Assembly: GCA_022432975.1 (NCBI GenBank)
Contig: CM039508.1
Coordinates: 24,925,278-24,989,277, forward strand
DNA length: 64,000 bases
Origin: Begonia masoniana
Lineage: Eukaryota > Streptophyta > Magnoliopsida > Cucurbitales > Begoniaceae
Direction: 5' to 3'
Numbering within the stretch: the first letter of the stretch is position 1; every line of letters begins with the position of its first letter. The translations under genes and the position numbers were made by a program. Under the pieces are notes generated by a model. The model was not told the DNA's origin and did not search any database. It saw nothing but the letters and a program-made list of their open reading frames with translations. This document shows, one piece after another, positions 32,923 to 56,154 of the stretch.

Positions 32923-33968
32923 ATAAGATCCAGAAGCCCATTGTATGACCTTCTTCAAGGAATTTGGGGGGATGAATCTATTAGTGTTCGGTGGAGAAGT
33001 TGATCCTCAGCCTGGTAAAAATTAGCTAAAGGGTATGCAGAAACAATTGAATGTTTTGCGAGTCTTGACCTGAGTATAGAGTGAGATTTTTCATCTTCTA
33101 CTTTGAAAAGATGGCCAAGGTCGGGTGGAAATCCCTGAGGTTTGAGTATCAAATTGACATTATGATGTAGACACAGTTTAAGATGAGATTTTGTGACAAT
33201 TACTGCAATTTTGGTCACATACAAAATATGATCATCACTTACCTTGGCTTGGGCCATAAGGAGCAGATAGTTCTGGAGTACACTTATGCCATGTTTTGTG
33301 GAGCTGTCATAGTCTATCAAGGATATGAATCCAGTAAACTGGATTGTAAAGTTTAAGAAGAACCTGAGACCAAAGATTCATTTTTTAGGTTATTGTTGTT
33401 GTTGCTCAACTTGTGGAGGATGACCTGAATGAGTTCTTTAGTGATTATAAAGGTAAGGGTAAAAAAGACCAACTATTTAGAGGAAAGATGATATGAAAAG
33501 ATTAGAGGAAAGGTCAAAACAAATGTGGACACATTCAAGGCCGTGGTTAGTTTAGTGATGGACCTTATGCTGTTGGGCATTCAAGCCATTATTTTTACCA
33601 TACATGTAGATAGTCTGAGCTTTTGAGAAGGAATTGTCTAAGTGAGTAAGAGACCTACTCCAACTAGTTCTGCACTGACTACGAAAGTTGCAGCTGGGCC
33701 TAGTTTTGGATTCGACGAAGGATGTGTTGGTCACGGTCAGCATCCATTCTACAAAATGAAAGATCGAATAAATGTTAATAATTTCCCGTTCATTGGCCCA
33801 AGTGACTTGTTCAATTGTCACATCACAACAAAGTACCTTAGATACATTATGAGAAAGAGGAAGCAACTTATTAGATACGGTCATAGATGAAGATAGAGTA
33901 TCCCCACATCTTGTGTGATTTAGATGTGCGCTTAAAGTTTTGGATAATCGTTATTAAGGACGGAAAGA
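32923..33968 (+). pseudogene. internally deleted gypsy remnant: gag piece plus chromodomain tail
   Basis: The plus strand near 32960-33110 gives FFKEFGGMNLLVFGG, VDPQPGK and KGMQKQLNVL, resembling the Gag block that precedes the LLKG...WWES motif. The last 90 bases give MKIEYPH and a short tail ending at TAA, like the C-terminus of gypsy chromodomains, directly before LTR-J. Almost all pol is missing. The 121-codon and 110-codon minus frames here are antisense accidents. Confidence 0.6.
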
Positions 33969-34627
33969 TGTAACATTTCATCGACTTTTGGCCAAAAATT
34001 TGTATTTTTATTATTAATTTGATAAATAAATAAGAATATGTTAATTTAAAGTACATTCTTCTATATGCTAGAAATTGAATAATCTAGTACCAGAGGGTTA
34101 GATTGACGTTAATTTAGAAGAAAGTTAAAGTAAATGAAAAAGTGTTAGTTAAACTGGATGATATGGGGGCAAAAGTGAAAATAATGGAAATTAGGGTTTA
34201 ATAGAGGATGGTGCATTGTTGTAATAAAAGGGCAAAATGTCTTTTAAGTATTTTTCATTTCCCCTCCCTTGCACAGAGAAAACATGAGAGTGGCAGAGAG
34301 ATTTGGAGAAAAAGAAGCAGAAGAAGAAGAATAAGGAAAAGGTTAAAAAGGGCTGAAGATTCGTGCTTCTAGTGGATTGGAAGATCACTAGGGTGCTGAC
34401 GCCCCAGGGAGGATGAGGGTCTTGTCTAAGCCAGGATGCAAGGGTGCTGATGACATAGCAAAAAGGAAGATCTTGGCTAGTGCTACAACTTTTTGTATTT
34501 GGGTGACTCTTAGACAGATTGTGAGAAAATTTAGCTAAAATTTCTTAGTGAAGTTTTTACATTTTTTGAAATCCATTTATTCCATGTTGACTTGAATTGG
34601 TCCTAAGCAGCCAATCATATGTGATTT
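33969..34627 (+). repeat. LTR-J, first copy (truncated)
   Basis: Begins TGTAACATTTCATCG right after the chromodomain tail, where a 3' LTR should start, and runs to the duplication junction. It contains a purine-rich gaagaagaagaat stretch. Confidence 0.6.
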
Positions 34628-34993: not shown

Positions 34994-36039
34994 ATAAGAT
35001 CCAGAAGCCCATTGTATGACCTTCTTCAAGGAATTTGGGGGGATGAATCTATTAGTGTTCGGTGGAGAAGTTGATCCTCAGCCTGGTAAAAATTAGCTAA
35101 AGGGTATGCAGAAACAATTGAATGTTTTGCGAGTCTTGACCTGAGTATAGAGTGAGATTTTTCATCTTCTACTTTGAAAAGATGGCCAAGGTCGGGTGGA
35201 AATCCCTGAGGTTTGAGTATCAAATTGACATTATGATGTAGACACAGTTTAAGATGAGATTTTGTGACAATTACTGCAATTTTGGTCACATACAAAATAT
35301 GATCATCACTTACCTTGGCTTGGGCCATAAGGAGCAGATAGTTCTGGAGTACACTTATGCCATGTTTTGTGGAGCTGTCATAGTCTATCAAGGATATGAA
35401 TCCAGTAAACTGGATTGTAAAGTTTAAGAAGAACCTGAGACCAAAGATTCATTTTTTAGGTTTTTGTTGTTGTTGCTCAACTTGTGGAGGATGACCTGAA
35501 TGAGTTCTTTAGTGATTATAAAGGTAAGGGTAAAAAAGACCAACTATTTAGAGGAAAGATGATATGAAAAGATTAGAGGAAAGGTCAAAACAAATGTGGA
35601 CACATTCAAGGCCGTGGTTAGTTTAGTGATGGACCTTATGCTGTTGGGCATTCAAGCCATTATTTTTACCATACATGTAGATAGTCTGAGCTTTTGAGAA
35701 GGAATTGTCTAAGTGAGTAAGAGACCTACTCCAACTAGTTCTGCACTGACTACGAAAGTTGCAGCTGGGCCTAGTTTTGGATTCGACGAAGGATGTGTTG
35801 GTCACGGTCAGCATCCATTCTACAAAATGAAAGATCGAATAAATGTTAATTATTTCCCGTTCATTGGCCCAAGTGACTTGTTCAATTGTCACATCACAAC
35901 AAAGTACCTTAGAGACATTATGATAAAGAGGAAGCAACTTATTAGATACGGTCATAGATGAAGATAGAGTATCCCCACATCTTGTGTGATTTAGATGTGC
36001 GCTTAAAGTTTTGGATAATCGTTATTAAGGACGGGAAGA
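34994..36039 (+). pseudogene. gypsy gag/chromodomain remnant, second copy
   Basis: Duplicate of 32923-33968 within the second 2.07-kb unit, with the same stops and frames and a few substitutions. Confidence 0.6.
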
Positions 36040-38995
36040 TGTAACATCTCATCGGCTTTTGGCCAAAAATTTGTATTTTTATTATTAATTTGATAAATAA
36101 ATAAGAATACATTAATTTAAAGTACATTCTTCTGTATGCTAGAAATTGAATAATCTAGTACCAAAGTGTTGGATTGATGTTAATTTAGAAGAAAGTTAAA
36201 GTAAATGAAAAAGTATTAGTTAAACTGGATGATATGGGGGCAAAAGTGAAAAATAATGGAAATTAGGGTTTAATAGAGGATGGTGCATTGTTGTAATAAA
36301 AGGGCAAAATGTCTTTTAAGTATTTTTCATTTCCCCTCCCTTGCACAGAGAAAACATGAGAGTGGCAGAGAGATTTGGAGAAAAAGAAGCAGAAGAAGAA
36401 GAATAAGGAAAAGGTTAAAAAGGGCTGAAGATTCGTGCTTCTAGTGGATTGGAAGATCACTAGGGTGCTGACGCCCCAGGGAGGATGAGGGTCTTGTCTA
36501 AGCCAGGATGCAAGGGTGCTGATGACATAGCAAAAAGGAAGATCTTGGCTAGTGCTACAACTTTTTGTATTTGGGTGACTCTTAGACAGATTGTGAGAAA
36601 ATTTAGCTAAAATTTCTTAGTGAAGTTTTTACATTTTTTGAAATCCATTTATTCCATGTTGACTTGAATTGGTCCTAAGCAGCCAATCATATGTGATTTT
36701 TCAGTCAAAAGGTCAAATCGATAAAAATTTAGGGTTATCGCTTAATTTAAATTACAAAATAACAACGTTAGTTAAGTGGAAGTTACAGTTTTGAAAGAAA
36801 GTTTAAATTTTCAGCCAATTAGAATTAAAGATTTATTTAATACATAAATATCAAATTATATATTATTAATTAAAAATTTTAATTAAATAAAATTTTATAA
36901 AAGCACCGAAGAAACACCCTCCCACTCCCACGGGTGAGAAGGAGAAAGTGGAAGAGAGAACCGGAGTGTTTTGCTCTATATGATTTGTCATCCTAGCATC
37001 CTAATCTTAGTGATTTAGCAACGATTTTCATGCGTACGTTGTTTCTAACCATCTGTTTCGTTCATTTTTGTTGATTTTTGCGCTATTTGTTCATATTTGA
37101 TTTCGAGTTTGAAAACTCAAAATCATTGGTTGAAATCAATGTATTTGAGTTGATTTTGTGCATTGGAATAATTTTTGGGCAGAATTTTTTAGTTTTAGTC
37201 ATCAAAAATAGATATTTACAAAGTTGTCGATGATATGACTAAATTGGGACTTAGCGTGTGCTAAGTCGTGGCATAGAGTCGTTCCATGTGGACGAATGGG
37301 TGTGCATCATGTGGCGTGCGCACAGGCAATCCATGTTGTGGCGCGCCTCCTTTGAGTCACGATGCTTGTGCCTGTATGGCTTTGTGTCGTAGCATTGGGG
37401 CAATTTTGGTAGCCACGGTGTTGCACTTTTGGATTTGCGGTGCTAGCCTCTTTCCTTGTCATTTGACCTATTTTCTGGGCATTGTTTTGGCCCAATTCCT
37501 TAGGCTGTGTTGGACATGAAATAGGCCAAGTTTTGGTTTGGCTTGAAATTCACGGTCGTTTATCATTTTCTTACGTTTTGGGTTTCTAGTCTTGATTTAA
37601 GATCCATCCATTGTGCCTAGTGTTTATATGAGATTTTGACGTTAGATACTTTTTAGGTTTTGATGATGTTTCGTGTTTCGAGACTGTCTCCGTCAACTTA
37701 TTTTTAATTGTCGGAAATACAATCTTCTTCGAGATTGAGGTATCTTTACTCTTCGACATTGTATCACGTTTTTCAAAACGCTTATGTTGTTAAACAACAT
37801 GTTAGCTTTTATAATATAAGTATGACATTTATACATATTTATTTTATGCATGCATAGTATTTCATCTTATTTGATATATATGTCGGACGAACCTTTGGCT
37901 ATTTTTGTTGCAACTTGTCTTGTGATGGCAAGAACAACTTAAAATTCTGTTAATTATGAGAGCACAACTCATACTAGTGCAGGATGCACAATCCTACGTC
38001 AGTTAGGAGAGAGAAAAGTGAATGATTTATAAGTAAAATTCTTCTCTCGCCTTGTGAAAGCAATAACAACCAAAATTTTGCTAATTGTGAAGGTCTAGCC
38101 CATTACCAGTGGGGATACACAATCTCGCATCACTTTGAAGAATAGAAAGTAAACGGTTTATGAATAGAATTTTCATTCCTACCAAGTACAACACGTTTTA
38201 GTCAAATCTCAATAACAAATCTTTACTGGCCTTTGCTCAAAGCAGTCAATATTGTACTAAGAGCACGGGGGACTCCACAGTTTTGGTCTAGTCTTTTGGG
38301 CTCCTTTGTTTGTTACTCCATTTCTGCTGCGCTGAAAATGTTTTATTTATATGTGTGACATGGTATGAAGACAGTGATGACGTGTCCTTCATTTTGAATC
38401 CCTAAACATTGAATGGTCTTGAGATAGTCGTTCTTTCTCTCCTACACGATTGATTTATCTTTAGATAGTCATTATTTCTCTCTTACGTGATTAACTAGTC
38501 TACGAAGAGCCATTATTCTTTCTTTTACGTGCTTTGCAATGTTCAAAGGTCTGTGAGTGACATTATTTTCACTGCGACTAGATTCTACAAAAAATGAAGG
38601 CCCTTTTATTTTGTATATACTAATTATAAAACTTCATTCATTGGCTCATTGTTATTTAATAAAATAAGAAAGCTAGTTTTCTCATGCATTTAGTTATAGT
38701 ACATGATATCTTACTGAGTTAGTTAATCACTTCAAAAAAAAAAAAAAATTAGATAAAGATTGTGTAGATCAAGAGTAGTTGACCGTCCTAGAGTTTCTCA
38801 TTCATTTCCCTTGGGTGTGAGGTATTTTATTTCTTGTACATTATTTTCTTTCTATGTATATATTGCATTTTGTTTTTACTTTGAGGTCACTATGTGAATT
38901 TCGATCCATCTCGTGTGGGCTATCATTATTTTTTCTAAAGTCTTCCATTGTACACGAAAGTTTCGACTAGAATATTGGGTACCCTACAAAGATCG
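36040..38995 (+). repeat. LTR-J second copy and following LTR-like sequence
   Basis: TGTAACATCTCATCGG at 36040, past the end of the duplication (36699), into unique sequence with a TATA-like ttttataaaagc (36890-36901) and a transcribed-region-like cccactcccacgggtgagaagg. Paired 'acaactcatactagtgcagg' and 'cccattaccagtgggg' style blocks (about 37960-38120) are also present. Composition is that of a gypsy LTR. The right end is uncertain; gggtaccctaca near 38990 is a candidate. Confidence 0.45.
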
Positions 38996-39716: not shown

Positions 39717-41995
39717 TCATCCAGCAAAGGACACTGCAATCGGACTTAGAACATTGTGGAGACCGTCATTCCATTTATACCAACCGAAACTGTATTTATC
39801 TTTCTCAGCTTTGCTTAGCATGCCACTTATTGCACTCACCGTCATGGTGAAGGTCCTCTTTTGGCCAACTTTGTCGAAAAGTAAAATGCTAGGAGATGAC
39901 CTTATGGTGGTCCCTTTCGGTGGTCTAGCAGAAAAGAAGTAGATACTCTGTTGAGATCCAACATTTGTTAATGTCCTTGTTATCATTATAGAGCCTTTGA
40001 GATTGGGAATTGCTATGGATGGGTAGTTGAGGTTGACTGATGAAATTGATTTTCTTGGACAGGTGAATTTTGGGTCGATAGTCTTGATTACGAGGCTGCA
40101 AAGATAGAGAATGTAGTCCGAGTATGAGGCGTCGTACACCAACCCGGGATCCACTGCTTTGGTTGGGCGGAAATGGCCAGACCCGAATGCGAAAGGCATA
40201 GAAATAGTACCAGTTTCATCAGACAATGGCAAACCTATGTTGTTTCTTATTCCAGCTGTGAAGGACGATGGAAATCATTAGAAACCATAGCATCAAAGTC
40301 CAATTAAGCTTATAGATTGCATCAAACAAGCATATCAGTCTATCTCAGTCATGATGATCAAACCAGGTATATGATCAAAAGCAGGAAATATGTCTGCATA
40401 TATTGTAGATTAATAAGAAAATTTACAGATTCATTTGATATAACGATCCTTTTATTTGTTTGAGTTACCTGTGGTCATGAGGGCAGATCTTATTGCAGCG
40501 CTGCTCCAAGTGGGATGTATGGCTTTCAAAAGGGCGATGGAGGCAGCAACGTGAGGGCATGACATTGAAGTTCCAGAGAAGATGTTGTACCGAACAACTC
40601 TGTGATCTTGACCAGATAGCCTCGTCGGTGGATTCGCAGGACTCCATGCTGCTAATATATTCAACCCTGGCGCCGTAATGTCCGGCTGAAAACGAACAAA
40701 TAGTTAGAAATCATCACCCTTTCTTGCATCTATTTAATTATAGTGATTCCATGCCGATATTGCTTCTTATTCTATTTCGGTTCCTCAATAAAGCATGAAA
40801 TTACCTTTAGAATGAATGGATCAATGGAATTTGGACCTCTACTTGAAAAGGCAGCCATGGATGGAGCTGGCTTAGTGTGCAACATAGTTTTTGCGGGAAG
40901 GATGGAAGCTGTAGGTTTGTTGGTAGAGTTGATGTACTTCATAATTTTAATGGCGTCTTCATAAACAACTGCAGTGGCTGGAAGAACATGAGCATCACAA
41001 GAGATTTCTGCTCCATTTGCAGGGCCATTTCCCAATATAAAACCAGCTCCTCCTGCTCTCTTCACTTCCATCCCTTTTCCAACTCTCGTCCCTGATCCTC
41101 TCATGCAAAGTACTATCTTCCCTTTTGTTTTTGTCTCTGAAAGTGATCCTGGAAGGCATTGCCTGAAACGTGCACAGTTTGTTCACTAAATTTCAATTGA
41201 AAAGGGTAATGTTTTTGGTGGAAAAGGCAGAAAAAAGTTGGATTTTATTGTCGAAATACCCTGCCATGTCTTTTGTCACGTTCGGTTTGATTACCTCTGC
41301 AGCATATACTATTGAGTACATTTTGTTTTCCAGTTTTGATGGCGTCACCGTTTGACCCTGCAATAGAGATTTTTTCTATTATTACAATTATATATTTGAC
41401 TAAATTTGCAGTGCTCAAGAGTTAAAAATTTGCCTTAATTTTATTGCCGTTTCCAAGAATAACAGGAGCCGGAAACTCCCGATCAACACTGCTGGCAGCA
41501 ACCGTGATAATCCATGGGGCTGGGTTGGACAATGTGGAAGGTCCAGGCCCCGAATTTCCAGCGCTACAAGCCACCACTATGTCCTTCTTAATAGCGTGCA
41601 AAGCTCCCACTGCAATCCCATCATTCGTATAATTCACTGGTTTAGACGTTCCGATCGATATGCTCAGAACATTGACACCGTCGGCAATGGCATCGTCTAT
41701 CGCGGCTAACATGTCTTCTTCAAAACACGTGTTTCCGTCTGCCTTGGTATGACCTGGTATTGGCCAACACACTTTGTAGATCGCCAGTCGGACCAGCGGT
41801 GCACCACCTGACGCAGTTCCCCTGGCAAACCCTCCGAGGGCAGAGGCATTTTTGACCCTTCTCCCACCGACAGTGGAGGCAGTGTGTGTTCCGTGACCAT
41901 CTTTGTCTCGAGGTGATCGATAATCTTCTGTCTTGTTCAAGTGTCCGTAGAATTTTTCGTAGCCTTTGATGTAGTATCTAGCCCCGATTAACTTC
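39717..41995 (-). CDS. SBT5.6: SBT5.6-like gene, exons 5-9
   Basis: 3' block of the gene: catalytic His, oxyanion Asn, PA insert, catalytic Ser and fibronectin-like domain. Acceptors: ttgcag/GAAG (exon 5), ctgcag-like tgcag/GGTC (6), tttcag/GCAA (7), ttcag/CCGG (8) and ttcacag/CTGG (9). Intron 5 begins AAG/gcaaat, a GC-AG intron; the other donors are GT. A gene caller that cannot cross the large intron would report this block as a separate, N-terminally truncated gene. Confidence 0.93.
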
Positions 41996-44900
41996 CTGCA
42001 ACAATGTAATACTAAGCAATATTTAAATGAGAGTAATAATGGAAAACAAGGGATGAATAAAATAAGTGAGAAGGACATATCAACCATACAGCCTAGGAAA
42101 AGTTCGAAATTTGGAAGCACAAAAGATAAGGGGGACCCTTCCAACTGTGTGTACAAAACAAAAACAGCTAAGCTTGCTCATAAACAATCATATTATCTCA
42201 TTTGAAAAAAAAAAAAAAAGAAAAGAAAAATCAACCTTACAAAACAAAATATTCGGAGTAAAGTGTTTTATTTAATTATTGGACTTGTCTAAATTGTTAC
42301 ATGTAGCAAGGGTGTAACTTTAACTCCCATCTAATAATGAGAAAAAAAAAAAAAAAAAAAAAGAATGAGAAGACATTTTATAATAGAATTGCATTGGGTG
42401 TGGCTAGTAGTGAGAATGGTTGGGTTCGGTTCTAACTTTAAAAATATAAGAAAATTGAACCTGGTAGAATCTGAAGTTGTCTAATCAGTTCTTGGTTTCA
42501 TTTTTGGAAAACTAGTCAGAAACCAAACTGAATTATATTGGAAGGGTATTTAATTTTTTTCTGTAACTCTTGTAACATTACAAGTCATGACCGATCAAAG
42601 TCGAGCCAGACAAATAAATATAACCAAAATCATTAAAACCAAAGAAAAAATCGAGGCAAAAATGGAAAATCAAAAAAGACCAAATGTAACATACTAAGGT
42701 TAGTTCATTTTTAAAATTTAAATTCCCAAATCAGAATAAAAATCAAAGTCTTAATTCTAAACATAATCATAGATTTTAGCCCTAAATCTCTCAAGATCGT
42801 AGGGAAATCCGAAATTATCTTCAACAAACAGCTTAACAACTGTTAGCTTGTCATGGAAGGGGCCTCTATGAAAGGCTACACAGTTGGGCTACCAAAGGCA
42901 AGCACAGTAAAAACAAGAAATGCCAGCCCAAGCCCAAATTATATGTTGATGACGTGGCCAAACCGTTAGGAAAGAACACCATTATAACTAGCAGCAATGG
43001 AGAGTGAAGGGGGGGATTTTTTGGTTATCTTTCATTTTTCTATTTTGTTATTTTCTGTATTTTCTATCTTTTCTCTGTAGAACTCTACGAGCCGATTGAG
43101 GATTGAATGAAGATTGCTTGATTTTCTGAAACCTTCGCTCATTTCTGAGTTGTGAACCCTGGGTTACACAACAAGTGGTATCAGAACAACTACGATCAGA
43201 AAATGACAGAAACCAGAGCAGCCGCGATTGGAGGGATGGCTGAATCGAGAGAAAAATCAAACGAAGAGAACCTGCGGAAGCTCACCGACGGGCTCCAATG
43301 ATTGCAAAACGTGATGTCCGATATCAGCACTCAGGTGGCCACCACGGGCCAAAATTTTCAGGATCTGCAAATTAAATAGGACCGTGGAGAGGACATTCCA
43401 CACCTTGGTGCATAAGTTGACAGCACAACAGGAGGTGATTTTGTCCATGCTTATGAAATTGACTCAGTCTCAGTCGAGTACCGGAGTACATCAACCGGGG
43501 GTAACTGACCCTGGCGAGAAATCGGCATCGCTAGGATACCACCCTTCACTGAGAATCAATAGTCCGATCACTGCCGCTGAGATGGCGCCGATTCTCCAGC
43601 AATCAACCGAATCTGGGCAGAAGCAATATGTGGGGACCTATTTTTGGCGACAACAGTAAGCAAGGGGAGATTCATCTATGCGTTCTTCCAGCGCACCAGT
43701 CGCAGCGGCGGAATCGGGGTTGAGGGCAGCCGTATTCGGAGAGCACGGATTGAAACAGCCAGTACACAGTGCTCCATTCCTGCCATTTTAGTCAAATACG
43801 CTAATCCCACCACTTCAGCGACAACATCTTCCTTCCAAATCGGCAGTGCTGAAGGTTGACGACATTACCCTAGCTCTTGCGGGGTCTGGCGCGAACCAGA
43901 CTATGTCTAAACCAATCAATTCAGTTCAGCACGTCGTTGCCTTCAACCCAACCTATGATTAGCTATGGGTGCCTATATACGGTCCTTCACATTCCTATGC
44001 GAATGACGAAATTGCGCAGGGAATGCGAAATCAAAAGCTGAGTTTTGTGGAGAATGTTTCGATTGAGTCGTTTCAGTCTGCCAATGATGTCCGGCTTTCA
44101 TCTCTCGAACTGGAATCTCTTAACGATGGATGCAACGTGCATGCACCTCAACACTCTGGCGAAGATAACAAGAACTTAGCAAATCATTTGAAGGCAACTT
44201 TAGGATCCTCCTGGAAGGAAATTCTTTGTGGATAACAAATTCTGGAAGGAAAAATGGATTTCGAGAGTCCAGCAGTTCTTATCGTGAGTTCATCTGAAGT
44301 TTTAATTCGTAAGATTTTGAACTATAAATCGACACGAAAAAAATGATATTATAAGCCTAGTTGTGTATTTTCCTCGATGAGGTGAGACATAATGTCCAAG
44401 CTCGGCAAGTTTTTGGAACTCTACTTGTGTTGCATATTCTTCCAAAGTACGGTGGTAATTTAGCTCAAATAGTGCATGATGCAGACAAACCTAGCAAAGT
44501 TGTTCATCTTAAAGAGCTTTACCGTCATAATGATCCTGAAGCAACGATTAGATTATTTGAAAGCCAACCATCATTACAACGCAACTCAACTGCAGTCTCT
44601 GAATATGTCAAGGCATTAGTACAAGTTGACAAGTCTCTGAATATGTCAAGGCATTAGTGCAAGTTGACAGGCTGGATGGAATGGAACTTCTCAAGACTTT
44701 ACAGAGAGGCATTTCAAATGCATCTAGGGAAGAAGAAAGTATTGGTGGCTTTTCAGCCTTCAGGAATGCTGGAAAGTCTATCAAAGATGGTGTTCTTGGA
44801 ACTGCCAATGTTCCCATTCATATGGTGGCTACTGAAGGAGGACATTTTAAAGAACAGCTATGGCGAACTATTTGCCTTATTTTATTGGCTTTTCTCTTGA

Positions 44901-47900
44901 TCTCTGCTGTAGGAGCACCTATTGAAGATAGGGGAATCAGTAAAGGATTTGGCCTCAACGAGGAGGTGCAGCTTATAATGGAATCAAATACAAAATTTAA
45001 TGATGTCAAGGGTGTGGATGAGGCTAAGGCAGAACTTGAAGAAACTGTTCACTATCTCCGCGACCCAAAGAGATTTACTCGTCTTGGTGGAAAGCTCCTA
45101 AAAGGTGTTTTACTCGTTGGCCCTCCAGGCACAGGTAAGACAATGTTGGCGAGGGCTATTGCTGGAGAAGCTGGGGTTCCCTTTTTCTCATGTAGTGGCA
45201 GTGAGTTCGAAGAGATGGTTGTTGGTGTTGGAGCCAGGAGAGTTAGGGATTTATTTTCTGCTGCAAAGAAGCGGTCTCCTTGCATTATCTTAATTGATCA
45301 AATTGACGCCATTGGTGGGAGTCGGAATCCAAAGAACCAACAATACATGAATATGACTCTGAATCAGTTATTGGTTGAACTTGATGGCTTTAAACAAAAT
45401 GATGGGATAATTGTGATTGCAGCAACCAATTTTCCCGAGTCATTGGATAAGGCCTTGGTGAGACCTGGGCGTTTGATCGCAACATCGTTGTGCCTAATCC
45501 AGATGTTGAAGGACGAAGGCAGATTTTGGAGTCTCATATGTTGAAGGTCCTGAAGGGAGATGATGTTGACATGATGATCATTGCTAGAGGAACTCCTGGG
45601 TTCTCAGGTGCTGATTTAGCAAATTTAGTGAATATAGCCGCATTGAAGGCCTCCATGGATGAAGCGAAAGCAGTGACCATGGCTGATCTGGAATATGCAA
45701 AGGACAGGATTACAATGGGAAGTGAACGCAAGTCAGCTGTTATTTCAAAAGAGTCGCGAAGGTTGACGGCTTTCCATGAGGGTGGCCATGCTCTTGTTGC
45801 CATTCGTACTGATGGTGCACTTCCCGTGCACGAGGCAACGATAGTACCCAGAGGAATGGCTCTTGGCATGGTTGCACAATTGCCAGAAAAAGACGAGACG
45901 ACTATTTCCTTAAAATAGATGCTTGCTAGGCTTCATGTTTGCATGGGAGGACGGGCTGCAGAGGAGCTTATCTATGGAGAAAGTGAGGTTACATCCGGTG
46001 CATCATCTGATCTCCAGAATGCAACTTCACTCGCTAGAGCGATGGTTACAAAATACGGAGTGAGCAAAGAAGTTGGGCTGGTTTCTCATGACTAAAACGA
46101 CAATGGTAAAAGCATGAGCACAGAGACGAGGTAGAGTGTGGAAGAAGCCGACTGTCGAAGAGCATATGATTCTGTTGCTCTATAAATTTTTATCCTTGAG
46201 GACAAGATATGTTAAAGGGGAGGACTATCATGGAATGGGCTTCAGGCTACACAGTTGGGCTACCAAAGGCAAGCACATTAAAATCAGAAAATGCCAGCCC
46301 AAGCCCAAATAATGCGTTGATGACGTGGCCAAACCGTTAGGGAAGAACACATTATAACGTGCAGCAATGCAGAGTGAAGGGGGGGATTGTTTGGTTATCT
46401 TTCATTTTTCTATTTTGTTATTTTCTGTATTTTCTATCTTTTCACTGTAAAACTCTACGAGCCGATTGAGGATTGAATGAAGATTGCTTGATTTTCTGAA
46501 ACCTTCGCTCATTTCTGAGTTGTGAACCCTGGGTTACACAACATAGCTGTTGAATAAAATCTGCGATGGAAATTGGATTTTGTGGGGAGTCGGCTGGAAC
46601 CTACCCTTATAAATAGAGGTACCCCTAGGAGTTCAAGTACTCACCTCTGCAACTTCAAGTTCTCCACCTTTCGACCTCCAACCATTGTCCAGATGTAGCG
46701 AAGTCCTCCAAGGAAGCAACAACTCCGCTATGAGCAATCGATTGAAGTTTCCGATCAACCTCCCAAGCGAAGTACTCTTCTCGGTCAAAGATTTCACCAC
46801 CAATCGAAGACGCTCTCTACGGTCGAAGCCTCGGACCACCCTCTTCCGGCGAAGGCGCTCATCTCTCTGATGTGCAGCAACTCCGATCGGCGAGGCACAC
46901 TATGAAACCCACCAACAAGTTTAGGGGAGAAAACAGACGAGGACAAAGAGGTAATTTTCTCTTCCCTAAATCAACTTGCCACCTATACAATTCTTCTCCT
47001 CCTACTTAATAATCTCCTTCTGTTATTTCCCCCTCCAGAAACCCTTCTGTTGAAGGCGCCGCGCACCAGAGAAGAAAGAAGGAAACAGAGGGAGAAAGGT
47101 TGAATTGGACCTTCGACGTTCAGCTTCTTCTCGTATTGTTTTGTTTGAGAAATAGTTTTACTCATCTGTTTTCCTTTTTCTTCAGTTCCGAAAGCTTTAT
47201 CTCTTTCTTCTTGGACTTGTTGATTCCTTTGCTGTTGAGGTTTTTTTTTTTTTTGAGATCGAATGAGATTGTCAAAACCCTTGAGTTCTTCTCTGCTGGC
47301 CGTAGGTATGAACCCAAACTCTTGAGTTCTTGTCTGCCATGTTATTGTCAAAACCTTTGGGTTCTTCTCAGCTATGTTTATTGCCAAGGGTTATATATGT
47401 AAAGGTTCTTCTCTGCTGTGGGAAAATAATTTTCGGTATATAAAGGTCTTGCATCAATACTCTAGATATGAGAGACTTATAGTTAGCAAAACAGGGAGTT
47501 GAAATTTCTAGAATGTAGTTATATATGCATTGTAGTCGAGCCCAAATTGTGAAGAAATGAGACCAAATTATGGATTAATTACCCAATTTGATGTGGATTG
47601 TCTTATGGAGAATGAATTGAGAGACAAAATAGCCCAAAAATAATGAATGACTTTATTCTTTGTTAGGTACCAATTTATTGAATTAAAGTGTGGACTCATT
47701 GACTCGGGCACTTGGATATATTGAGTTTTGACATGTTGTAAGTGCAATCGAGGTAGGGGTTTATTTTATTTTTGGTTAAGTATTATTATTTTTAATTCAT
47801 TAATTAAATTCATTTATTTGGCATAAAATGTTCATTTAAATTTTATGCTATTATTTTCATTCACACATTTATCAACTGCATATTTTATCATTGATAAAAA

Positions 47901-50900
47901 TTGTGTGGTTTTAACTAGAAGTAATAGGACAGCTGAAGAGCCGTGTCCTTGGGCGCGAAACCCTAAACCTGATCAGGGTAATTATGGCGTGCGACCGCCT
48001 GATGTCGATGTTTTGGCCTATGGCCCAGTGTGCTCGGAGTCCATGAGAGACTCCATTTTCACCGATCATCTATTTAAATTGAAAACTGCATTTTTATTAA
48101 ATTTCTGCATAATATTTTATAACTGCTGGAAATAAACTCTATCCCTATTGAGTTTAGTCGACTCACCCCAAACGACTACTATTTTTCAGGATTCAGTAAA
48201 GGAGAATTTGATTATTGGCACTGGAACAATCACTTTACAGAAATTCCCTATTTTAATAAACTTTTCTTGAGAAAGTATCTTATATTGTTGAGGTGAGACA
48301 CTACTGTGGATGTGTAAGCTTTGTTGTATTTAATTCACATGTGTTATTTTATTTGGACATATATCATTATATCATCTGGTGTCACTTGTTGGACCTGTTT
48401 ATTTATCTGTCTGGGCTCTAAATCTGAATTGGTTAATATTCCGCTGCGTTTGGTGAAATTTGGTGTTAAGGGTCGGGCGATCTAGTCCTTTTCGGGCCGG
48501 GTCGTTCCCCGTTCTGTTGCGGGTCCCCTTTGGGTCGTGACAGAAAAAAATGGTATCAGAGCAAAGGTTGCCCATCTTGAAAAGTGACACTTATAAGATA
48601 GATGATGTGATGATATACGAGAATTATTCTTGTGCCTAAGGATGTGATACAAAAGCTGATTGGGTCAAATATGCTATTTGGAACGCATCTCGAGGTTGTT
48701 CGCTAGAGAATGATGATATTTCATATACGTGCATATGTGGTTTAGAGTAGTTGGAAATTAATGGAGAAGTGGTAAGTGTACGCTTCGTAAATTGATATAA
48801 GGGATGGAATAAGAGGATTAGAACTCTTTTGGATTAGTTTGTGAACCTTTGGGATTATCTGAAAAATAAAAATTACATCTTATGATATAAGTATTGGTCT
48901 CTTCTAGAAAATTCAAGACTTATATTGTCTTACTGGGAATTCTTTAGTCCGAGTTAGGGATTGTTGTTCGTAAATTTTAATTCAAAGACGAATTGTACGT
49001 ATATTCTCGGTTCAAGAAAATATGGGTGAACGTTCTCAATATGTCTTCATTTTGTGTGTTCGGCTCAAGGATAGGTTTCTGTTGAAGTGGTTAAAGATTC
49101 TTGGATCAAGATTGTTATGAGAGAACCTTTATTTTTAGAAAAATATTGTCAAAATTATAGAGTTGTCTTGTGGTATTAAGGTGTTGGTTGCGATAAATTA
49201 ATGATAAGTTTAAAAAGTATCAGAGTAATAAAATCTGTTTATGACTAACGAGGATATAGTCCGGTTCTATTTTGTTGTTCAAAGTATAAAGAATTTGACT
49301 TTAGAAATTGTTTAAATAAGTATAAGAAGAGAGATGATTGGAAATGGTCTATTATGATGAATATTAAGAGTCATAGAAGATGGACTTTTTGGACATGCTT
49401 ATATAGTTAAAGGGTTAACTTCTATGATTAGTGTTGTTGATGCGTTGTTCCTAGTACAACTATTTATTTTCACAAGTTGAGTGAGGTTGGACTTTACAAA
49501 ATTCTTTTGTTAACACCAATTTCAATATTTTTTTGTTGAAGTGTTTTGGTAGTCACCATGTGTGTACGAAAATTTTTTCATAATGATTCTTGTTAACCAT
49601 GTTCGTGGGCTTGTTAAGTGAACATTGGACAAACACATGGTGCTAGCCTTATATTGACATTATATTATTGGCTTATGTAACGAGTGTAGAAGATTAAAGC
49701 ATTTTGGTGGTGTGCTTCTTTTATTAGTGGTGACCATGTGACAGTGAAGAGGTATGTAGATTTGTCGGTTGTAATCATGTGTTCTGACATCTGTTCTTGA
49801 GGATATGCCTGGGTTACCACCCGACCACGAGATTTATATGTCATTATGTTGCATTAATTTGAATCTACCATTGCTCCAATTTCTTATACTCTATTCATAA
49901 TAATTTCAGTTTAGTGGAGAAGTCTGCATACAAAATGGAATGATTTATAGCGTTGTGCTTGCATGGGTACTGCACGTGGGATGTACCTTTATGATTCAAT
50001 TAGAGACAGTATCGTTGACGTAACTGAATTTGATTGTCAGGTGTTAGATTAATGTTACCATAGATTGGTATATCAGAGGAGAATGTTAAGAAATCTATTC
50101 TATTGTTTTTGGAGTATTTGATGTTGGACTTGCATATGCCACTTATGTACAGGGTTTGAGTTCCATATTGGTCATGTTAAGACTTATGTTGAGCACTAAA
50201 CATTTAAAAACTGTGTTGTGAGAATGTAAAAATCTTTGGTTATATACTCAATGAAAGAAATGTTGCTTTTGGATTACTAAAGTTAAATAATTAATAGACA
50301 ACGTTACTTAAGGTGACCTTTCATTGGATCAAGCTTAGTTTGTGACAGTGTTGGATTGGGAGCAACCAAAGAATATTATTGATGCTTATATTTTTGAGAA
50401 TTAGCTAGTTGTTGTTGTTGAGGCGATGACATTTGTCTTCTATGGTCAATCTTTTGACTCTTTTTACAGTAAAGAATGTTGAGAATGTTTGAAATGAAGG
50501 AATCTGTCAACCTTAAAAGTTAGACACGGATTGAGAGTGACACCTAAGTTGACAGTGATCGATAGTGATTGATAAAAGAGATTTATTTAGATGCACGAGT
50601 TGTACATTTTGAACGTGTGATAATACATCCTTGTAGAGTTCATGTATAAGTATTGTGAAGATTGAGGTATTGAAAGTGAACTTACACCACTTATGGATTA
50701 CGGTTGATCTTAACAATCTTTTGTCTCCATGTGACAAATTTTTCGTAAGGTGTGAAAGTGAGTTGGTTTATATGTCATTTAAATATGTATATCACTTTAG
50801 TCAAGGTGATTAGAATCTCATATAAAAGGGAAAGTTTGATTATATAAATTTGGTTGTAATTTTATCTTGAAAAGTCATATTGGTGAGTTAATGATATGAC

Positions 50901-53900
50901 AGTGTTTTGGTTGACACCCTAAAGACTTTATTTTATATTCAGGGTGAAAAGATTGAGAGCGTCTTTTGACAAGACCTAGAAGTGAGAGGTTGAATCATTG
51001 ATCTGATGGTTTTTGTATGTAATTTAATATAGCTCCTTACTATTTTGCGACATATCAAGGAAATACTTAATCATGAATTTAACAAAATGTTTGGTCAATT
51101 GAGTAATGTAAGATGAGAAAGTTGAGTTGGTGCATTTATATTTTGCAAGGACAAAATTATGAGATCAAATGACATTGTTAATGTAGTCAAGTTTTGGATG
51201 GATTGCCATGGAACTGAATATAGTGGTATGATATATGGTTGAACTTTGACTTATCTATGGTCTGGGGCTAAACAATAGAAACGTGCTAGACTATTCAAAA
51301 TGGTATATTTGGAGTGGACATTTGAAGACATTATGATGGATTTTGTTATCTATAATGGGAATTGTGCACGACCATTTTAATGTCGAAATTTTTATGAATT
51401 GTTTGCCAACCATCATTTCATCTGAGTGTGGATAAATTTCTCTTGAGAAAGCTTTGTGGAGGACATAAATTTTGTTGTGTTTCATTTAGTTATATTTTAT
51501 ATGAATCCAAAGTTTATATCTAAGTTTTTGAACCCATGCTGAGGATTTTGGGCAATGAAATAACTTCAATTTGACTTATCACCTTACGACAAATGGATAG
51601 TCTAAAGGACACTTCACTTTTAATGATATGTTGAGGACGTGAGATTTAATTCTTAGTTATAATTTTTGAATCATTTACCGGATACAAAGTTTGTGTTGCC
51701 ATGGAGATAGAATGAGGATAATTTCGAGAGGCTAAAAGAACTATGCAACTTTTAGAGGTGAGATGTGTTGTTTGAAACCCATGGTTTTGTGTTTCTGAAA
51801 GTCAGGATGTTGTTTTGGTGTGAAGATAAGTTGGTCATGAGTGCAATGGAAGAATCACAATGAAAGAGAAAATACTTAGGAACTTGAATCGGAGATGAGA
51901 ATAAAGTATCCCCAACTATTTAGTGATATGACCTTAATTGATCTAAATTTCGAGGACGAAATTTCATTAAGTGGGGGAGAATGTGAAACCCACCAACCAG
52001 TTTAGGGGAGAAAACAGACGAGGACAAAGAGGTAATTTTCTCTTCCCTAAATCAACTTTCCACCTATACAATTCTTCTCCTCCTACTTAATAATCTCCTT
52101 CTGTTATTTCCCCCTCTAGAAACCCTTCTGTTGAAGGCGCCGCGCACCAGAGAAGAAAGAAGGAAACAGAGGGAGAAAGGTTGAATTGGACCTTCGACGT
52201 TCAGCTTCTTCTCGTATTGTTTTGTCTGAGAAATAGTTTTACTCATCTGTTTTCCTTTTTCTTCAGTTCCCAAAGCTTTATCTCTTTCTTCTTGGACTTG
52301 TTGATTCCTTTGCTGTTGAGGTTTTTTTTTTTTTTTTTTGAGATCGAAGGAGATTGTCAAAACCCATGAGTTCTTCTCTGCTGGACGTAGGTATGAACCC
52401 AAACTCTTAAGTTCTTGTCTGCCATGTTATTGTCAAAACCTTTGGGTTCTTCTCAGCTATGTTTATTGTCAAGGTTTATATATGTAAAGGTTCTTCTCTG
52501 CTGTGGGAAAATAATTTTCAGTATATAAAGGTCTTGCATCAATACTCTAGATATGAGAGACTTATAGTTAGCAAAACAGGGAGTTGAAATTTCTAGAATG
52601 TAGTTATATATGCATTGTAGTCGAGCCCAAATTGTGAAGAAATGAAACCAAATTATGGATTAATTACCCAATTTGATGTAGATTGTCTTATGGAGAATGA
52701 ATTGAGAGACAAAATAGCCCAAAAATAATGAATGACTTTATTCTTTGTTAGGTACCAATTTATTGAATTAAAGTGTGGACTCATTGACTCGGGCACTTGG
52801 ATATATTGAGTTTTGACATGTTGTAAGTGCAATCGAGGTAGGGGTTTATTTTATTTTTGGTTAAGTATTATTATTTTTAATTCATTAATTAAATTCATTT
52901 ATTTGGCATAAAATGTTCATTTAAATTTTATGCTATTATTTTCATTCACACATTTATCAACTGCATATTTTATCATTGATAAAAATTGTGTGGTTTTAAC
53001 TAGAAGTAATAGGACAGCTGAAGAGCCGTGTCCTTGGGCGCGAAACCCTAAACCTGATCAGGGTAATTATGGCGTGCGACCGCCTGATGTCGATGTTTTG
53101 GCCTATGGCCCAGTGTGCTCGGAGTCCATGAGAGACTCCATTTTCACCGATCATCTATTTAAATTGAAAACTGTATTTTTATTAAATTTCTGCATAATAT
53201 TTTATAACTGCTGGAAATAAACTCTATCCCTATTGAGTTTAGTCGACTCACCCCAAACGACTACTATTTTTCAGGATTCAGTAAAGGAGAATTTGATTAT
53301 CGGCACTGGAACAATCACTTTACAAAAATTTCCTATTTTAATAAACTTTTCTTGAGAAAGTATCTTATATTGTTGAGGTGAGACACTACTGTGGATGTGT
53401 AAGCTTTGTTGTATTTAATTCACATGTGTTATTTTATTTGAACATATATCATTATATCATCTGGTGTCACTTGTTGGATCTGTTTATTTATCTGTCTGGG
53501 CTCTAAATCTGAATTGGTTAATATTCCGCTGCGTTTGGTGAAATTTGGTGTTAAGGGTCGGGCGATCTAGTCCTTTTCGGGCCGGGTCGTTCCCCGTTCT
53601 GTTGCGGATCCCCTTTGGGTTGTGACACACACACCTCCTGTATGTTTCGGCAGACGCGATGTGAAAGAGGAAATCGCGAGGAAGGAGAAGAAGATTGGGT
53701 TTTTCTTGTAAGCCCGACCTGTTTCACTTAAAAACGGTGCAGCCGAACCCACCAGTCTACTCAAACCAATTGGTCCAGGTGAATCGAAATGGCCCAGCCG
53801 AATTGAACCGGTCAAACTGGATTGGACCATTGAACCAGAAACAGTACAGACCAGATCATATCACTTCTAGACTGTCAAATTTGACCAGAATTAACTCGGA

Positions 53901-56154
53901 AGCTGATTGAATCGATCATAATTCTACCCTAACCTATCTAAGAATATATTATTAGAGAATTTTTGCCCAAATTCTTGTAAAAGAGATTTATTTAAATGAA
54001 AATTTAATCTCAATTATTTTATTTAGGCAAAAAATTATTCAAAATCTTGAAAAACTATAAACTAGTAAATAAATAGGAAAGAGCAGATCCCTATAACCCT
54101 ACCCTCTCAGAATTCAAGTAAGTAAAAATACAAAATTTTCAACGTTTTGGCTATCGAACCTACATAACAAAACCTATAGTAATTTTCTTTATAATTATTT
54201 TATTATTTGATTATGATATTTGATACGGATGTTTAGACATTGACATATGATCGTATATAGATAAATATGATAGGACATATTGTATACTAATATAATATAT
54301 GAATCTGATGGAATTGACAAAAATATTTGATAGTTAATAAAATCCTAAACAAATTGAGATGACTAATAAAAGTCTGAACGTAAAGGAGGTGACTAATGAA
54401 AGTTTGAATGTATAAGATGACTAATGAAAGTCTGAACAAATGTTAGAAAATGAGTTTCTGTGTATGTAATTGCTAAGTATGGATTTAATAACATATGAAA
54501 TTAATTTACACATACGCATGCTTTTACTTATTGAATTTATCTCATACTTTATAATTTGATGAAAAGTGAATGTTAAAATACAAACTTTCGTGTGTTAATA
54601 TTCAATGACATTCAAAATTATGAAATTTAGGTTTTTAAATATTGATTTTAATCCTAATTTGTTAATCGATTTTGGAAAAAAATTTAGGGTTAAAATGAAT
54701 TTAAAAATTTTGGGGCGTTGCACCAAAATCAAAAAATTTCGATTTGGCTCCAAACCTATGCTCCGTTTAGTTTCAATTGTACGAAAAAATCCAAAACAGC
54801 TGGGCGATCTAGATGTGGAATAGAATGCAACCGCAGTGGAGCAATTCCAGTCTTTAACTCCTACCTGGGAAGAAATTCATTCCGTAATTGGGGGTGGGTA
54901 ATAACACTTATCTTCTTGCTTGTTTTAGGATAACCTTGAAGGTTTTAAGAATTTCTACGCACGAGAGGAAAAGCTAGAACTCCAAAAATAAATCTGTAGC
55001 TACAAAAGATGAAGAGTACACATCTGATCTGACCTTACTTGACGTCTATCTGCTGGCTCTCCTCCTCGCCTACTTTTCAAAAAGTTTCTCCAAACCCAGT
55101 TTTCTAAACTTGCCAATAATGTTTCATTTTTTGAGATTAGGTTTTGTTATTCTTTACGTGGGTGACGTTGTTACGAACATAAATTAAATCTTAGAACTTA
55201 GAACTTAGAAGATCATCATTCTAATCAAATGAAAAGAAAGAAGAACCTGTTACAGTGAGAAGAACCAAAAGCAGGTCCTGTCTGGCAGATTCCCTTCCAT
55301 GATTTAGGAACTGGACCCATCCCTTTGTCTCTGAAGCTCTTTGACTCTGGCCACACACCTGATTCATCACCCACTTTCTCACATTTTCATTTTTATGCCA
55401 ATTTGACACTAATCAAATTACACTCTGGTATTTGTAAATATTAGAGAGAGAGAGAGAGGGAAAGATGATAATGGAAGGATTCAAATGAGAAACAGTGATG
55501 AAAAGTTTTACCACTATCCAAAAGCCCCACCACAATTCCTTCCCCATAGTTGGCTATGGTAAGTAAATCTCTTCCGCTCCTCGTGTTCCTCACTCTTCTT
55601 TCTTCCTCCTCTACTAAGCCTGAAAACTCCCATGACCTTGTTGTATGCACGGAGTACTTTCTTGGGTAGCTTCGGAAGACAGATACCACTTCCTCCATTT
55701 CTGCTAACAAGACCAGGTTTCACAATTCCAGAGAGAGAGAGAGAGAGAGAGAGTCTCAAACAGATATTGTGTTTCTGAAATGGAGTACCAGAGAATTGGG
55801 AGGCTTCATCAGGAGTGAGAACAGCAGCAAAGCCATTGATGCTGTGTTTGTAACTGTAGAGAAGAGAACGTTTTGCATCTTCTTTACTCTCCTTCACAGA
55901 AAGCAAATAAGAATGATGGGCTTCTTCTATTTCGTCCAATGCTCTTTCTCCGCTGTGTTCTCCAAAGTAAACTATATAAACCTAACAACCCACAAAAAGG
56001 AAAAAGGAGCCTTGAGAACAAAGAGCAAAAATTGCAAAAACTCCATAAAAATGAACTCATTCCATTCTCCAAAATAATTAATGACCTGGTTTTCATTACA
56101 GGAAGCAAGAAGAAGAAGAAGAAGAAGAAGAATGGAAGTTAAGAATAACTTCAT
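39717..56154 (-). CDS. SBT5.6: subtilisin-like serine protease, SBT5.6 type; nine exons, intact
   Basis: Exons: 56154-56086, 55981-55789, 55700-55512, 55358-55247, 41995-41434, 41357-41260, 41162-40805, 40685-40469, 40255-39717. They total 2337 nt (778 aa plus TGA), with phase kept at every junction. Signal peptide 1-19 with a poly-Leu core; I9 propeptide about 24-106; predicted mature start at TTRSW (107). The S8 domain has Asp149 (LLDSG), His222 (DGHGTH), oxyanion Asn335 (SAGNSGP) and Ser567 (GTSMSCPH). A PA insert (about 400-480) and a C-terminal fibronectin-III-like domain (about 670-778) follow. Plant subtilases are secreted endoproteases acting in the cell wall. Length and blocks fit Arabidopsis SBT5.6; orthology is inferred. 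Intron 4 is 13.25 kb of nested retroelements; intron 5 uses a GC donor. Confidence 0.93.
42849..43173 (+). repeat. 5' LTR of element K (325 bp)
   Basis: TGTCATGGAAGG...GGGTTACACAACA. Shares over 300 bp with 46226-46543. Confidence 0.93.
43176..43187 (+). promoter_or_regulatory. primer-binding site of element K
   Basis: TGGTATCAGAAC, one mismatch from the plant initiator tRNA-Met site, two bases after the LTR end. Confidence 0.88.
43203..43660 (+). pseudogene. gag-like start of element K
   Basis: ATG with [18 protein letters not shown], a heptad-like LRKLTDGLQ stretch, then in-frame stops at 43299-43301 and 43377-43379. It resembles the N-terminal coiled region of some plant gypsy Gag proteins, but no capsid or zinc-knuckle block follows. 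Confidence 0.5.
43795..44073 (+). pseudogene. captured fragment of splicing factor PRP17/CDC40
   Basis: In one frame: [17 protein letters not shown], then [20 protein letters not shown], a TAG at 43960-43962, [13 protein letters not shown] and [14 protein letters not shown]. These match the N-terminal region, ahead of the WD40 repeats, of plant PRP17 (CDC40), a step-II pre-mRNA splicing factor. Similarity ends abruptly after SIESF. About 90 residues, no WD repeats, one nonsense codon: non-functional. Identification is from memory of the family. Confidence 0.65.
44074..44330 (+). pseudogene. captured fragment resembling CMSS1 (Cms1-like protein)
   Basis: The frame continues with [10 protein letters not shown], then [19 protein letters not shown], a stop (44233-44235), and [18 protein letters not shown]. 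The SWKE...L(C)...GK...PAVLIVS arrangement recalls CMSS1/Cms1 family proteins, linked to small ribosomal subunit biogenesis. The nucleotide-motif region typical of the family is cut off. The assignment is tentative; alternatively an unrelated captured exon. Confidence 0.5.
44370..46131 (+). pseudogene. FTSH4: captured intronless FTSH4-like AAA metalloprotease, broken
   Basis: Homologous to plant FtsH4, an inner-mitochondrial-membrane ATP- and zinc-dependent protease with its catalytic site facing the intermembrane space. Seen: N-terminal helical region ([21 protein letters not shown]); membrane segment near 44870; Walker A GPPGTGKT (about 45121); Walker B with Gln instead of the catalytic Glu ([10 protein letters not shown]); sensor region [13 protein letters not shown]; and zinc motif HEGGH (45775-45789). 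Lesions: 38-bp tandem duplication (44595-44670) shifting the frame, one-base deletion near 45473, TAG at 45916-45918 and TAA near 46093. It lacks the last hundred or so residues. The whole run is intronless, consistent with cDNA capture. Confidence 0.88.
46214..46224 (+). promoter_or_regulatory. polypurine tract of element K
   Basis: aaaggggagga immediately before the 3' LTR. The preceding ccttgaggacaag is a common pre-tract gypsy sequence and supports a gypsy origin. Confidence 0.8.
46226..46543 (+). repeat. 3' LTR of element K (318 bp)
   Basis: TATCATGGAATGG...GGGTTACACAACA, homologous to the 5' LTR. First dinucleotide mutated to TA. Followed by TAGCT. Confidence 0.92.
46901..48542 (+). 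repeat. 5' LTR of element I (1642 bp)
   Basis: TATGAAACCC...GGGTCGTGACA; the start is mutated from TG. It contains a poly(T) run (about 47241-47254), and an open frame at 47845-48135 is duplicated in the other LTR with one residue change, so it is not a gene. Confidence 0.94.
48551..48562 (+). promoter_or_regulatory. primer-binding site of element I
   Basis: Perfect TGGTATCAGAGC eight bases after the 5' LTR. Confidence 0.95.
48563..51970 (+). pseudogene. degenerate gypsy (chromovirus-like) gag-pol interior of element I
   Basis: No long ORF. Short collinear family words remain: PGLPPDHEI near 49808 (protease-RT linker), [10 protein letters not shown] near 50350 (after RT), a [12 protein letters not shown] integrase block near 51315, and NHNERENT, a stop, [14 protein letters not shown] near 51850-51915 (chromodomain). 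A short tail then runs into the polypurine tract. Integrase after RT and a terminal chromodomain indicate a Ty3/gypsy chromovirus. The interior is shorter than a full gag-pol, so deletions are likely. Confidence 0.75.
51971..51981 (+). promoter_or_regulatory. polypurine tract of element I
   Basis: gtgggggagaa abutting the LTR start TGTGAAACC. Confidence 0.92.
51982..53627 (+). repeat. 3' LTR of element I (1646 bp)
   Basis: TGTGAAACCC...GGTTGTGACA. Differs from the 5' LTR by scattered substitutions and a poly(T) length change. Confidence 0.94.
55247..56154 (-). CDS. SBT5.6: SBT5.6-like gene, exons 1-4
   Basis: 5' block: signal peptide exon (23 codons), propeptide exon, exon with catalytic Asp, and exon with VWPES through SSHCN. 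Donors: CAG/gtcatt, CTG/gtactc, GTG/gtaaaa and CAG/gttctt. The split Arg codon at the end of exon 4 is completed exactly by exon 5 at 41995, showing that the two blocks are one gene. The frame following exon 2 in genomic sequence (FSGTPFQ...) is intron. Confidence 0.93.
55730..55752. repeat. (GA)n microsatellite in subtilase intron 2
   Basis: About 11 GA units 30 bp upstream of the exon 3 acceptor. On the coding strand it is (TC)n and may serve as the polypyrimidine tract. A shorter (GA)n lies in intron 3 at 55443-55459. Confidence 0.9.
56107..56131. repeat. (GAA)n microsatellite coding the signal-peptide Leu run
   Basis: Eight GAA/CTT units in exon 1 encode Leu9-Leu16. Slippage here would lengthen or shorten the hydrophobic core in whole codons. 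Confidence 0.93.

What the first reader, a model, noticed from the sequence alone, without database searches (positions are those of the whole stretch)
42849..46543. Bs1-like LTR retroelement that captured three host gene fragments
Seen: paired LTRs, TAGCT duplication, primer-binding site, polypurine tract, no pol, and in the interior consecutive intronless segments that read as PRP17/CDC40, a CMSS1-like protein and FTSH4, all in element orientation. Known: maize Bs1 is a retroelement carrying several cellular gene fragments, and such cases are rare. Inference: template switching during reverse transcription joined host mRNAs to element RNA. The junctions PRP17/CMSS1 (near 44073) and CMSS1/FTSH4 (near 44340-44370) are abrupt.
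Basis: partly seen in the sequence, partly recalled or inferred. Interest (0 to 1): 0.9.

Follow-up and report, generated by a model that had tools for sequence, protein, structure and literature searches.

The report
Retroelement carrying fused host-gene fragments
A jumping element in this plant genome has swallowed pieces of at least three unrelated plant genes, copied from their messenger RNAs, and it belongs to a family whose members carry different, often in-frame, patchworks of host gene pieces.

Summary
Window 42849-46543 is an LTR retroelement with a 5-bp TAGCT duplication and LTRs that differ by K2P 0.056. It carries PRP17 (43827-44073), CMSS1 (44070-44296) and FTSH4 (44448-46130). 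Parent genes lie on three other chromosomes (C15, C6, C4). One CMSS1 intron and four FTSH4 introns are missing in the element, so it copied spliced mRNA. A remnant of a fourth gene (GBP) precedes the polypurine tract.

Copies share a 5' leader, a CMSS1-derived core and a 3' end; between these, different copies carry fragments of GBP, SF3B1, RIO2, NEMF, lipase, IFRD, HSP70, DnaJ, HSP90, dynamin, ESF1, kinase, PPR and other genes. All cargo recognised is sense. Leader and core share a reading frame in 16 of 19 copies; one young copy (LTRs 99.7% identical) has a 900-aa open frame across leader, core and two host genes.

Best explanation: repeated microhomology-guided template switching onto co-packaged host mRNAs, with retention of open frames. 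It works like maize Bs1; membership was not tested. A maize survey found no LTR element with more than one nuclear gene.

The parts
42844..42848 (.). 5' target-site duplication TAGCT
   Evidence: identical to 46544-46548
42849..43173 (+). 5' LTR, TG...CA
   Evidence: direct repeats D1/D2; alignment; 48 matches of LTR plus leader in the genome, this element included
43176..43187 (+). primer-binding-site-like TGGTATCAGAAC (resembles initiator tRNA-Met PBS, recalled)
   Evidence: sequence read; not tested against a tRNA
43203..43826 (+). 5' leader reading frame shared by the family, presumed gag N-terminal part, broken in this copy
   Evidence: shared with sister copies; no Pfam match, so 'gag' is inference
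43827..44073 (+). captured PRP17/CDC40 fragment (within the single exon of the parent)
   Evidence: 91.5% to the parent locus on C15 (L017; L035 4353-4599); parent 582-aa ORF matches Prp17 PDB 8xi2_W E 2.5e-194
44070..44296 (+). captured CMSS1-like fragment, one intron removed
   Evidence: 94.6% and 90.7% to two exon blocks on C6 separated by a 95-bp GT..AG intron; the name CMSS1 is recalled
44297..44447 (+). about 150 bp of unknown origin, part of the core shared by sister copies
   Evidence: no continued match in the CMSS1 parent locus; a genome search for its source did not complete
44448..46130 (+). captured FTSH4 fragment, five exon blocks, four introns removed, truncated inside exons at both ends
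   Evidence: parent C4 (L056) blocks 89.8-96.9%; splice sites; AAA and Peptidase_M41 Pfam; i-AAA protease in PDB; plant FTSH4 proteins
44594..44669 (+). 38-bp tandem duplication inside the FTSH4 fragment
   Evidence: family D3
46131..46181 (+). remnant of a captured guanylate-binding-protein (GBP) segment
   Evidence: aligns with sister copies L031-L033; GBP identity comes from the upstream part of the same segment in sisters (L029, L032 and L038 match Pfam GBP)
46182..46213 (+). family 3' end (ILEDKD.. frame, presumed end of pol, recalled resemblance)
   Evidence: shared by sister copies
46214..46225 (+). polypurine tract
   Evidence: sequence
46226..46543 (+). 3' LTR
46544..46548 (.). 3' target-site duplication TAGCT

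Best explanation
A non-autonomous LTR retroelement RNA, packaged with host mRNAs, was reverse transcribed with template jumps at short shared sequences, so that PRP17, CMSS1, GBP and later FTSH4 mRNA pieces were stitched into its interior. The order was serial: PRP17+CMSS1 and a GBP piece were already present in sister copies, then an FTSH4 piece replaced most of the GBP piece, and then this copy inserted. The same process has run many times in the family, giving a modular layout: leader - slot A - CMSS1-derived core - slot B - 3' end. Copies whose joins keep one open frame from leader through the core are over-represented, presumably because that frame lets the RNA avoid nonsense-mediated decay or be translated and packaged. 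Shown: insertion signature, parents, intron loss, junction sequences, sense orientation of recognised cargo, frame bias, multi-copy family. Inferred: co-packaging, a helper element in trans, the reason for the frame bias.
For: TSD and paired LTRs. Three parents on three other chromosomes. Five introns absent (CMSS1 one, FTSH4 four) with exact joins. Shared bases at junctions: leader/PRP17 TCTT and core/FTSH4 TAC, PRP17/CMSS1 GTTT; the fourth, FTSH4/GBP, has about 1 nt. Sister copies with other cargo and their own exact TSDs: L038, L039, L040, L041. Pfam/PDB support for many further donors. No Pfam family at E<=0.01 in the three antisense frames of L039 and L040; in the antisense frames across the window element the only match, at E<=1, was the subtilase outside it. 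Leader and core in one frame in 16 of 19 sequences with both anchors, of 22 examined. L040: one 900-aa frame, LTRs 99.7% identical. Divergence: FTSH4 dS pooled 29/360 against PRP17 dS 0.11-0.18 in 7 copies fits PRP17 first, FTSH4 later.
Against: No helper with pol was recognised, but the loci were not searched for one systematically. dN/dS between sister copies is 0.60-1.27 in nine comparisons, so no clear selection on the encoded protein is seen; two of these pairs (L032/L033, L043/L025) hold 9-14 stops in the frame used, so their ratios are unreliable. Frame counts are not independent, because copies share ancestors. L033, L021 and L028 are out of frame between leader and core, and in L040 the 3' end is out of frame with the core. 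The FTSH4/GBP junction shows almost no shared sequence. CMSS1 was not found by protein search (the query was an 85-aa piece).
Confidence: 0.88

Rival explanations
1. Separate processed pseudogenes, made by LINE machinery, landed one after another inside an ordinary LTR element.
For: The CMSS1 and FTSH4 pieces are spliced.
Against: In the window the fragments are internal pieces of coding sequence without poly(A) or inner target duplications (read). They abut with 3-4 shared bases at three of four junctions. Recognised cargo is sense and mostly in frame, and the same joins recur in other loci.
Confidence: 0.04
2. DNA-level capture, as in Pack-MULEs or Helitrons, or ectopic recombination, assembled the fragments.
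For: PRP17 alone is uninformative, because its parent is intronless.
Against: Five introns are missing in CMSS1 and FTSH4; no antisense cargo in the three copies checked; LTR ends and 5-bp TSDs.
Confidence: 0.03
3. The chimeric frame encodes a working protein and is kept by selection on its function (a domesticated gene).
For: Frame bias and the 900-aa frame in L040.
Against: The window copy is broken by stops and frameshifts. Element-to-parent ratios (FTSH4 segments 0.25-0.77, PRP17 0.28-0.77) fit neutral decay against a constrained host gene (host ohnologue pairs 0.07-0.09). Cargo differs among copies.
Confidence: 0.05

Closest known systems
Maize Bs1 retroelement
   Same: LTR element that carries pieces of three cellular genes joined into a chimeric frame (PMC13317346, passages seen).
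   Different: Different host genes. Here there are dozens of loci with many different cargo sets and a shared core between two cargo slots. No sequence comparison with Bs1 was made.
LTR elements with captured genes in maize, rice, sorghum and pepper (PMC2774510, PMC3726574, PMC5664825; passages seen)
   Same: Host gene pieces inside LTR elements; in pepper spliced mRNA copies, often in non-autonomous elements.
   Different: [quoted passage not shown] Pepper authors mention two or three annotated genes inside single elements. Here many of the copies read carry pieces of two or more host genes.
Pack-MULEs and gene-carrying Helitrons (recalled)
   Same: Families that shuffle several host gene pieces per element.
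   Different: Those are DNA elements; here introns are lost and LTRs are present.
TR-GAG and other non-autonomous LTR elements (recalled; the term occurs in the listing)
   Same: Possible gag-like leader and no pol.
   Different: The leader has no Pfam gag match, and the rest is largely host cargo.

Membership tests
LTR retrotransposon | paired LTRs with TG..CA and target-site duplication | tested here: met
   sisters
LTR retrotransposon | PBS next to 5' LTR and polypurine tract before 3' LTR | tested here: met
   read in the sequence; the match to initiator tRNA-Met is recalled
autonomous LTR retrotransposon | protease, integrase, reverse transcriptase, RNase H | tested here: not met
   no such Pfam match in 8 ORFs of the element
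Ty3/gypsy superfamily | order and sequence of pol domains, gag domain | tested here: inconclusive
   no pol, and the leader has no Pfam gag match; lineage not assigned
Bs1 | sequence homology to maize Bs1 | not tested
   no Bs1 sequence compared; the resemblance is in mechanism only
retro-captured host genes | introns of the parent absent in the copy | tested here: met
   CMSS1 1 intron, FTSH4 4 introns; PRP17 parent intronless; not tested for the cargo of sister copies
processed pseudogene (LINE-made) | poly(A) tail and own target duplication | tested here: not met
   window fragments end inside exons and abut each other
Pack-MULE / Helitron | terminal inverted repeats or Helitron ends, introns kept | tested here: not met
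   LTR ends; introns lost

The most novel reading that the evidence does not exclude
This plant hosts a retroelement lineage that works as an mRNA-shuffling machine. Its replication routinely jumps onto host mRNAs at two preferred slots beside a fixed core and back again. In-frame chimeras spread best, because the element RNA must be one long translatable frame. Such a lineage would keep producing new multi-domain reading frames from many housekeeping genes (splicing, chaperone, ribosome-biogenesis), by frame filtering rather than by protein function.
Probability: 0.4. Interest if true: 0.9.

Novelty: new variant of a known kind. Interest (0 to 1): 0.8.

Why it matters
In the passages I saw, capture of several genes by one LTR element is described for Bs1 and mentioned in passing for pepper, and a large maize survey found none. 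A family with many different captures, known parents, readable junctions and young copies would make two open questions testable: how LTR elements acquire host mRNA, and what filters the products. It is also a natural source of new fused reading frames.

Tried and rejected
Tried without result: a protein search with the first 330 residues of the L040 frame (3228 candidates, none at E<=0.001) and with the 85-aa CMSS1 piece (69 candidates, none). I looked for an autonomous partner in two long relatives, C9:39.01M (L058) and C14:42.24M (L064/L065). Both carry host cargo, and I recognised no pol by eye; only three ORFs of L058 were scanned by Pfam. Genome searches for the 150-bp core piece and for the NEMF/lipase parents never got an answer (last tries), so parents were found only for PRP17, CMSS1 and FTSH4. 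The Bs1 paper PMC2899935 is not held. Rejected: a functional domesticated gene, LINE pseudogenes, DNA-level capture (see rivals). Not finding this family in print rests only on the listings.

Named by recall only: PRP3/RDM16-like (L032/L033; the L033 piece had no PDB match, and no Pfam match), BAG6-like (L039, L065; only a sub-cut-off IQ match in L039), Pumilio-like and HSP90 in L065, RBR-like (L016/L018; no Pfam match in L018:1501-2193), and the name CMSS1. VPS39 (L043) has a Pfam match just below the curated cut-off (21.8 against 22 bits, E 2.4e-4).
Full report
WHAT WAS CHECKED. The window lies at C7:24925278-24989277 of a 795-Mb genome, a plant by its genes. The element has a 5' LTR at 42849-43173 and a 3' LTR at 46226-46543, with an exact TAGCT duplication on both sides and K2P 0.056 between LTRs. 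A PBS-like stretch and a purine tract are in place. None of eight ORFs scanned has a pol domain.

THE THREE GENES. PRP17: window 43827-44073 matches C15 at 91.5% and C14 at 79.8%. Both loci hold a long one-exon ORF, and the C15 protein matches a Prp17 structure end to end (E 2.5e-194). The window piece by itself gave only E 0.28 to Prp17. CMSS1: 44070-44125 and 44125-44296 match two blocks on C6 (94.6% and 90.7%) separated by a 95-bp GT..AG intron that the element lacks; the gene name is recalled. FTSH4: 44448-46130 matches C4 exon blocks at 89.8-96.9% (76 mismatches and 2 gaps in 1676 aligned bases, summing the pieces, overlapping ends included). Four introns of about 403, 103, 125 and 725 bp are absent with exact joins, and an ohnologue on C1 is less similar (83.8-91.8%). 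Pfam, PDB and protein searches agree on an i-AAA protease of FTSH4 type. The fragment starts and ends inside exons. The parents sit on three chromosomes, none of them C7, so collinear neighbours are excluded.

A FOURTH REMNANT AND A SHARED CORE. Between CMSS1 and FTSH4 lie about 150 bp of unknown origin that sister copies share. In sisters L029, L031, L032, L033, L034 and L038 this core is followed by sequence that leads into a guanylate-binding protein (Pfam GBP in the three of these six tested over that part, L029, L032 and L038, E down to 2.8e-28). In the window the end of that piece survives at 46131-46181. FTSH4 therefore replaced the middle of an older GBP capture (inference from the comparison).

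JUNCTIONS. Leader/PRP17 shares TCTT and core/FTSH4 shares TAC. PRP17/CMSS1 shares GTTT (parents read). FTSH4/GBP shares about 1 base. By my arithmetic about 5% of random joins share three or more bases; three of the four window junctions do. Junctions of sister copies were not scored.

THE FAMILY. Hits of four probes (LTR+leader, leader/PRP17, FTSH4, CMSS1) were clustered after I left out 14 rows of parents and ohnologues (2, 10, 2) and 5 rows of distant paralogues. They fall into 96 places; 75, the window included, have an interior piece, and they lie on contigs C1-C15 and two small ones (clusters of 16 kb). The search scores at most 40 candidates, so this is a lower bound; some FTSH4-only places may not be family members. 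Only the window was hit by all four probes. I examined 22 family sequences in the frame analysis (window plus 21 loci), and L058, L064 and L065 apart. Exact 5-bp duplications were found around L038 (LTR identity 94.0%), L039 (99.0%), L040 (99.7%) and L041 (90.9%); four more, L031, L032, L033 and L042, have LTR pairs without an exact duplication (its printout was cut in the middle).

CARGO. Tested by profile or structure search: GBP, SF3B1 in L038 (PDB E 5e-46), RIO2 in L030, L022 and L042, NEMF-type NFACT_N and class-3 lipase in L040, IFRD in L042, HSP70 and DnaJ in L039, ESF1 in L028, protein kinase in L019/L038, TDBD in L018, PPR in L027, DUSP/UBP8-like in L037 (3' end of that copy not seen), an armadillo repeat in L039, HSP90 and dynamin in L058. 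Weak: Vps39 in L043, an IQ motif in L039. By recall only: PRP3-like, BAG6-like, Pumilio-like, RBR-like; tests of the PRP3-like and RBR-like pieces found nothing. Splicing factors, chaperones and ribosome-biogenesis factors recur; I did not test whether this exceeds chance, nor whether sister cargo lost introns.

ORIENTATION AND FRAME. All cargo recognised is sense to the element. Antisense was checked in three copies: L039 and L040 match no Pfam family at E<=0.01, and across the window element the only match was the flanking subtilase. Leader and core anchors lie in one frame in 16 of the 19 sequences that have both (L041, L022 and L057 of the 22 lacked one). The misses are L033, L021 and L028. 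L037's leader is in two frames and is counted by its later part; the window's core itself is in two frames and is counted by its first part. By slot-A cargo type 9 of 10 have an in-frame member, which chance would give about 4 times in 10,000 by my arithmetic if types were independent, which they are only in part. Core and 3' end agree in 7 of 9 (L033 by the end of its core); the window is ambiguous and L040 does not agree. L040 has one open frame of 900 aa.

SELECTION AND TIMING. Nine comparisons of sister copies give dN/dS of 0.60-1.27; host ohnologues give 0.07-0.09. Two of the nine (L032/L033, L043/L025) contain 9-14 stops in the frame used, so they mix frames and are unreliable. I read this as constraint on openness of the frame rather than on the protein sequence; that is inference. 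Pooled FTSH4 dS to its parent is 29/360; PRP17 in seven copies gives 0.11-0.18. Half of each against half the LTR distance puts the FTSH4 capture at about 1.5 times and the PRP17 capture at about 2 to 3 times the age of this insertion, roughly.

LITERATURE. The review PMC13317346 (passages) describes Bs1 with three transduced genes. [quoted passage not shown] PMC5664825 (passages) reports retroduplicated genes in non-autonomous elements and mentions two or three genes in single elements. The listings showed no title or abstract start describing a family like this one; subscription papers are mostly not held.

VERDICT. The finding is true, and more interesting than stated: a gene-capturing LTR family with serial, sense and mostly in-frame captures, shown to be spliced for two genes. 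Template switching is well supported for the window element. The helper element, the packaging step and the reason for the frame bias remain inference.

Noticed in passing
window 39720-56000, minus strand: A subtilase gene (I9, S8, PA and fn3 domains) appears split by an intron of about 13 kb (about 42.1k-55.2k); the element sits inside this intron, antisense to the gene.
   Followed up: partly
window 46986-48132 and 52067-53217: ORFs that begin alike about 5.1 kb apart point to a duplicated block in the same intron.
   Followed up: no
window 32958-34544 and 35029-36616, minus strand: ORFs that begin alike about 2.07 kb apart: a likely tandem duplication, without Pfam match in the two ORFs tested.
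   Followed up: no
window 1159-3834 (+), 8236-10042 (-), 4086-6383 (+): A copia-type pol ORF (RVT_2, integrase), ORFs with Retrotrans_gag and RVT_1, and a 766-aa ORF with Transposase_32.
   Followed up: no
L029, L031, L034, L058: Several family loci contain long high-identity tandem arrays with units of about 50-56 bp.
   Followed up: no
L039, L058, L065: Chaperone genes recur: HSP70 plus DnaJ in L039 (with a BAG6-like piece, recalled), HSP90 in L058 and, by recall, in L065 beside a BAG6-like piece. Whether cargo is functionally biased is untested.
   Followed up: partly
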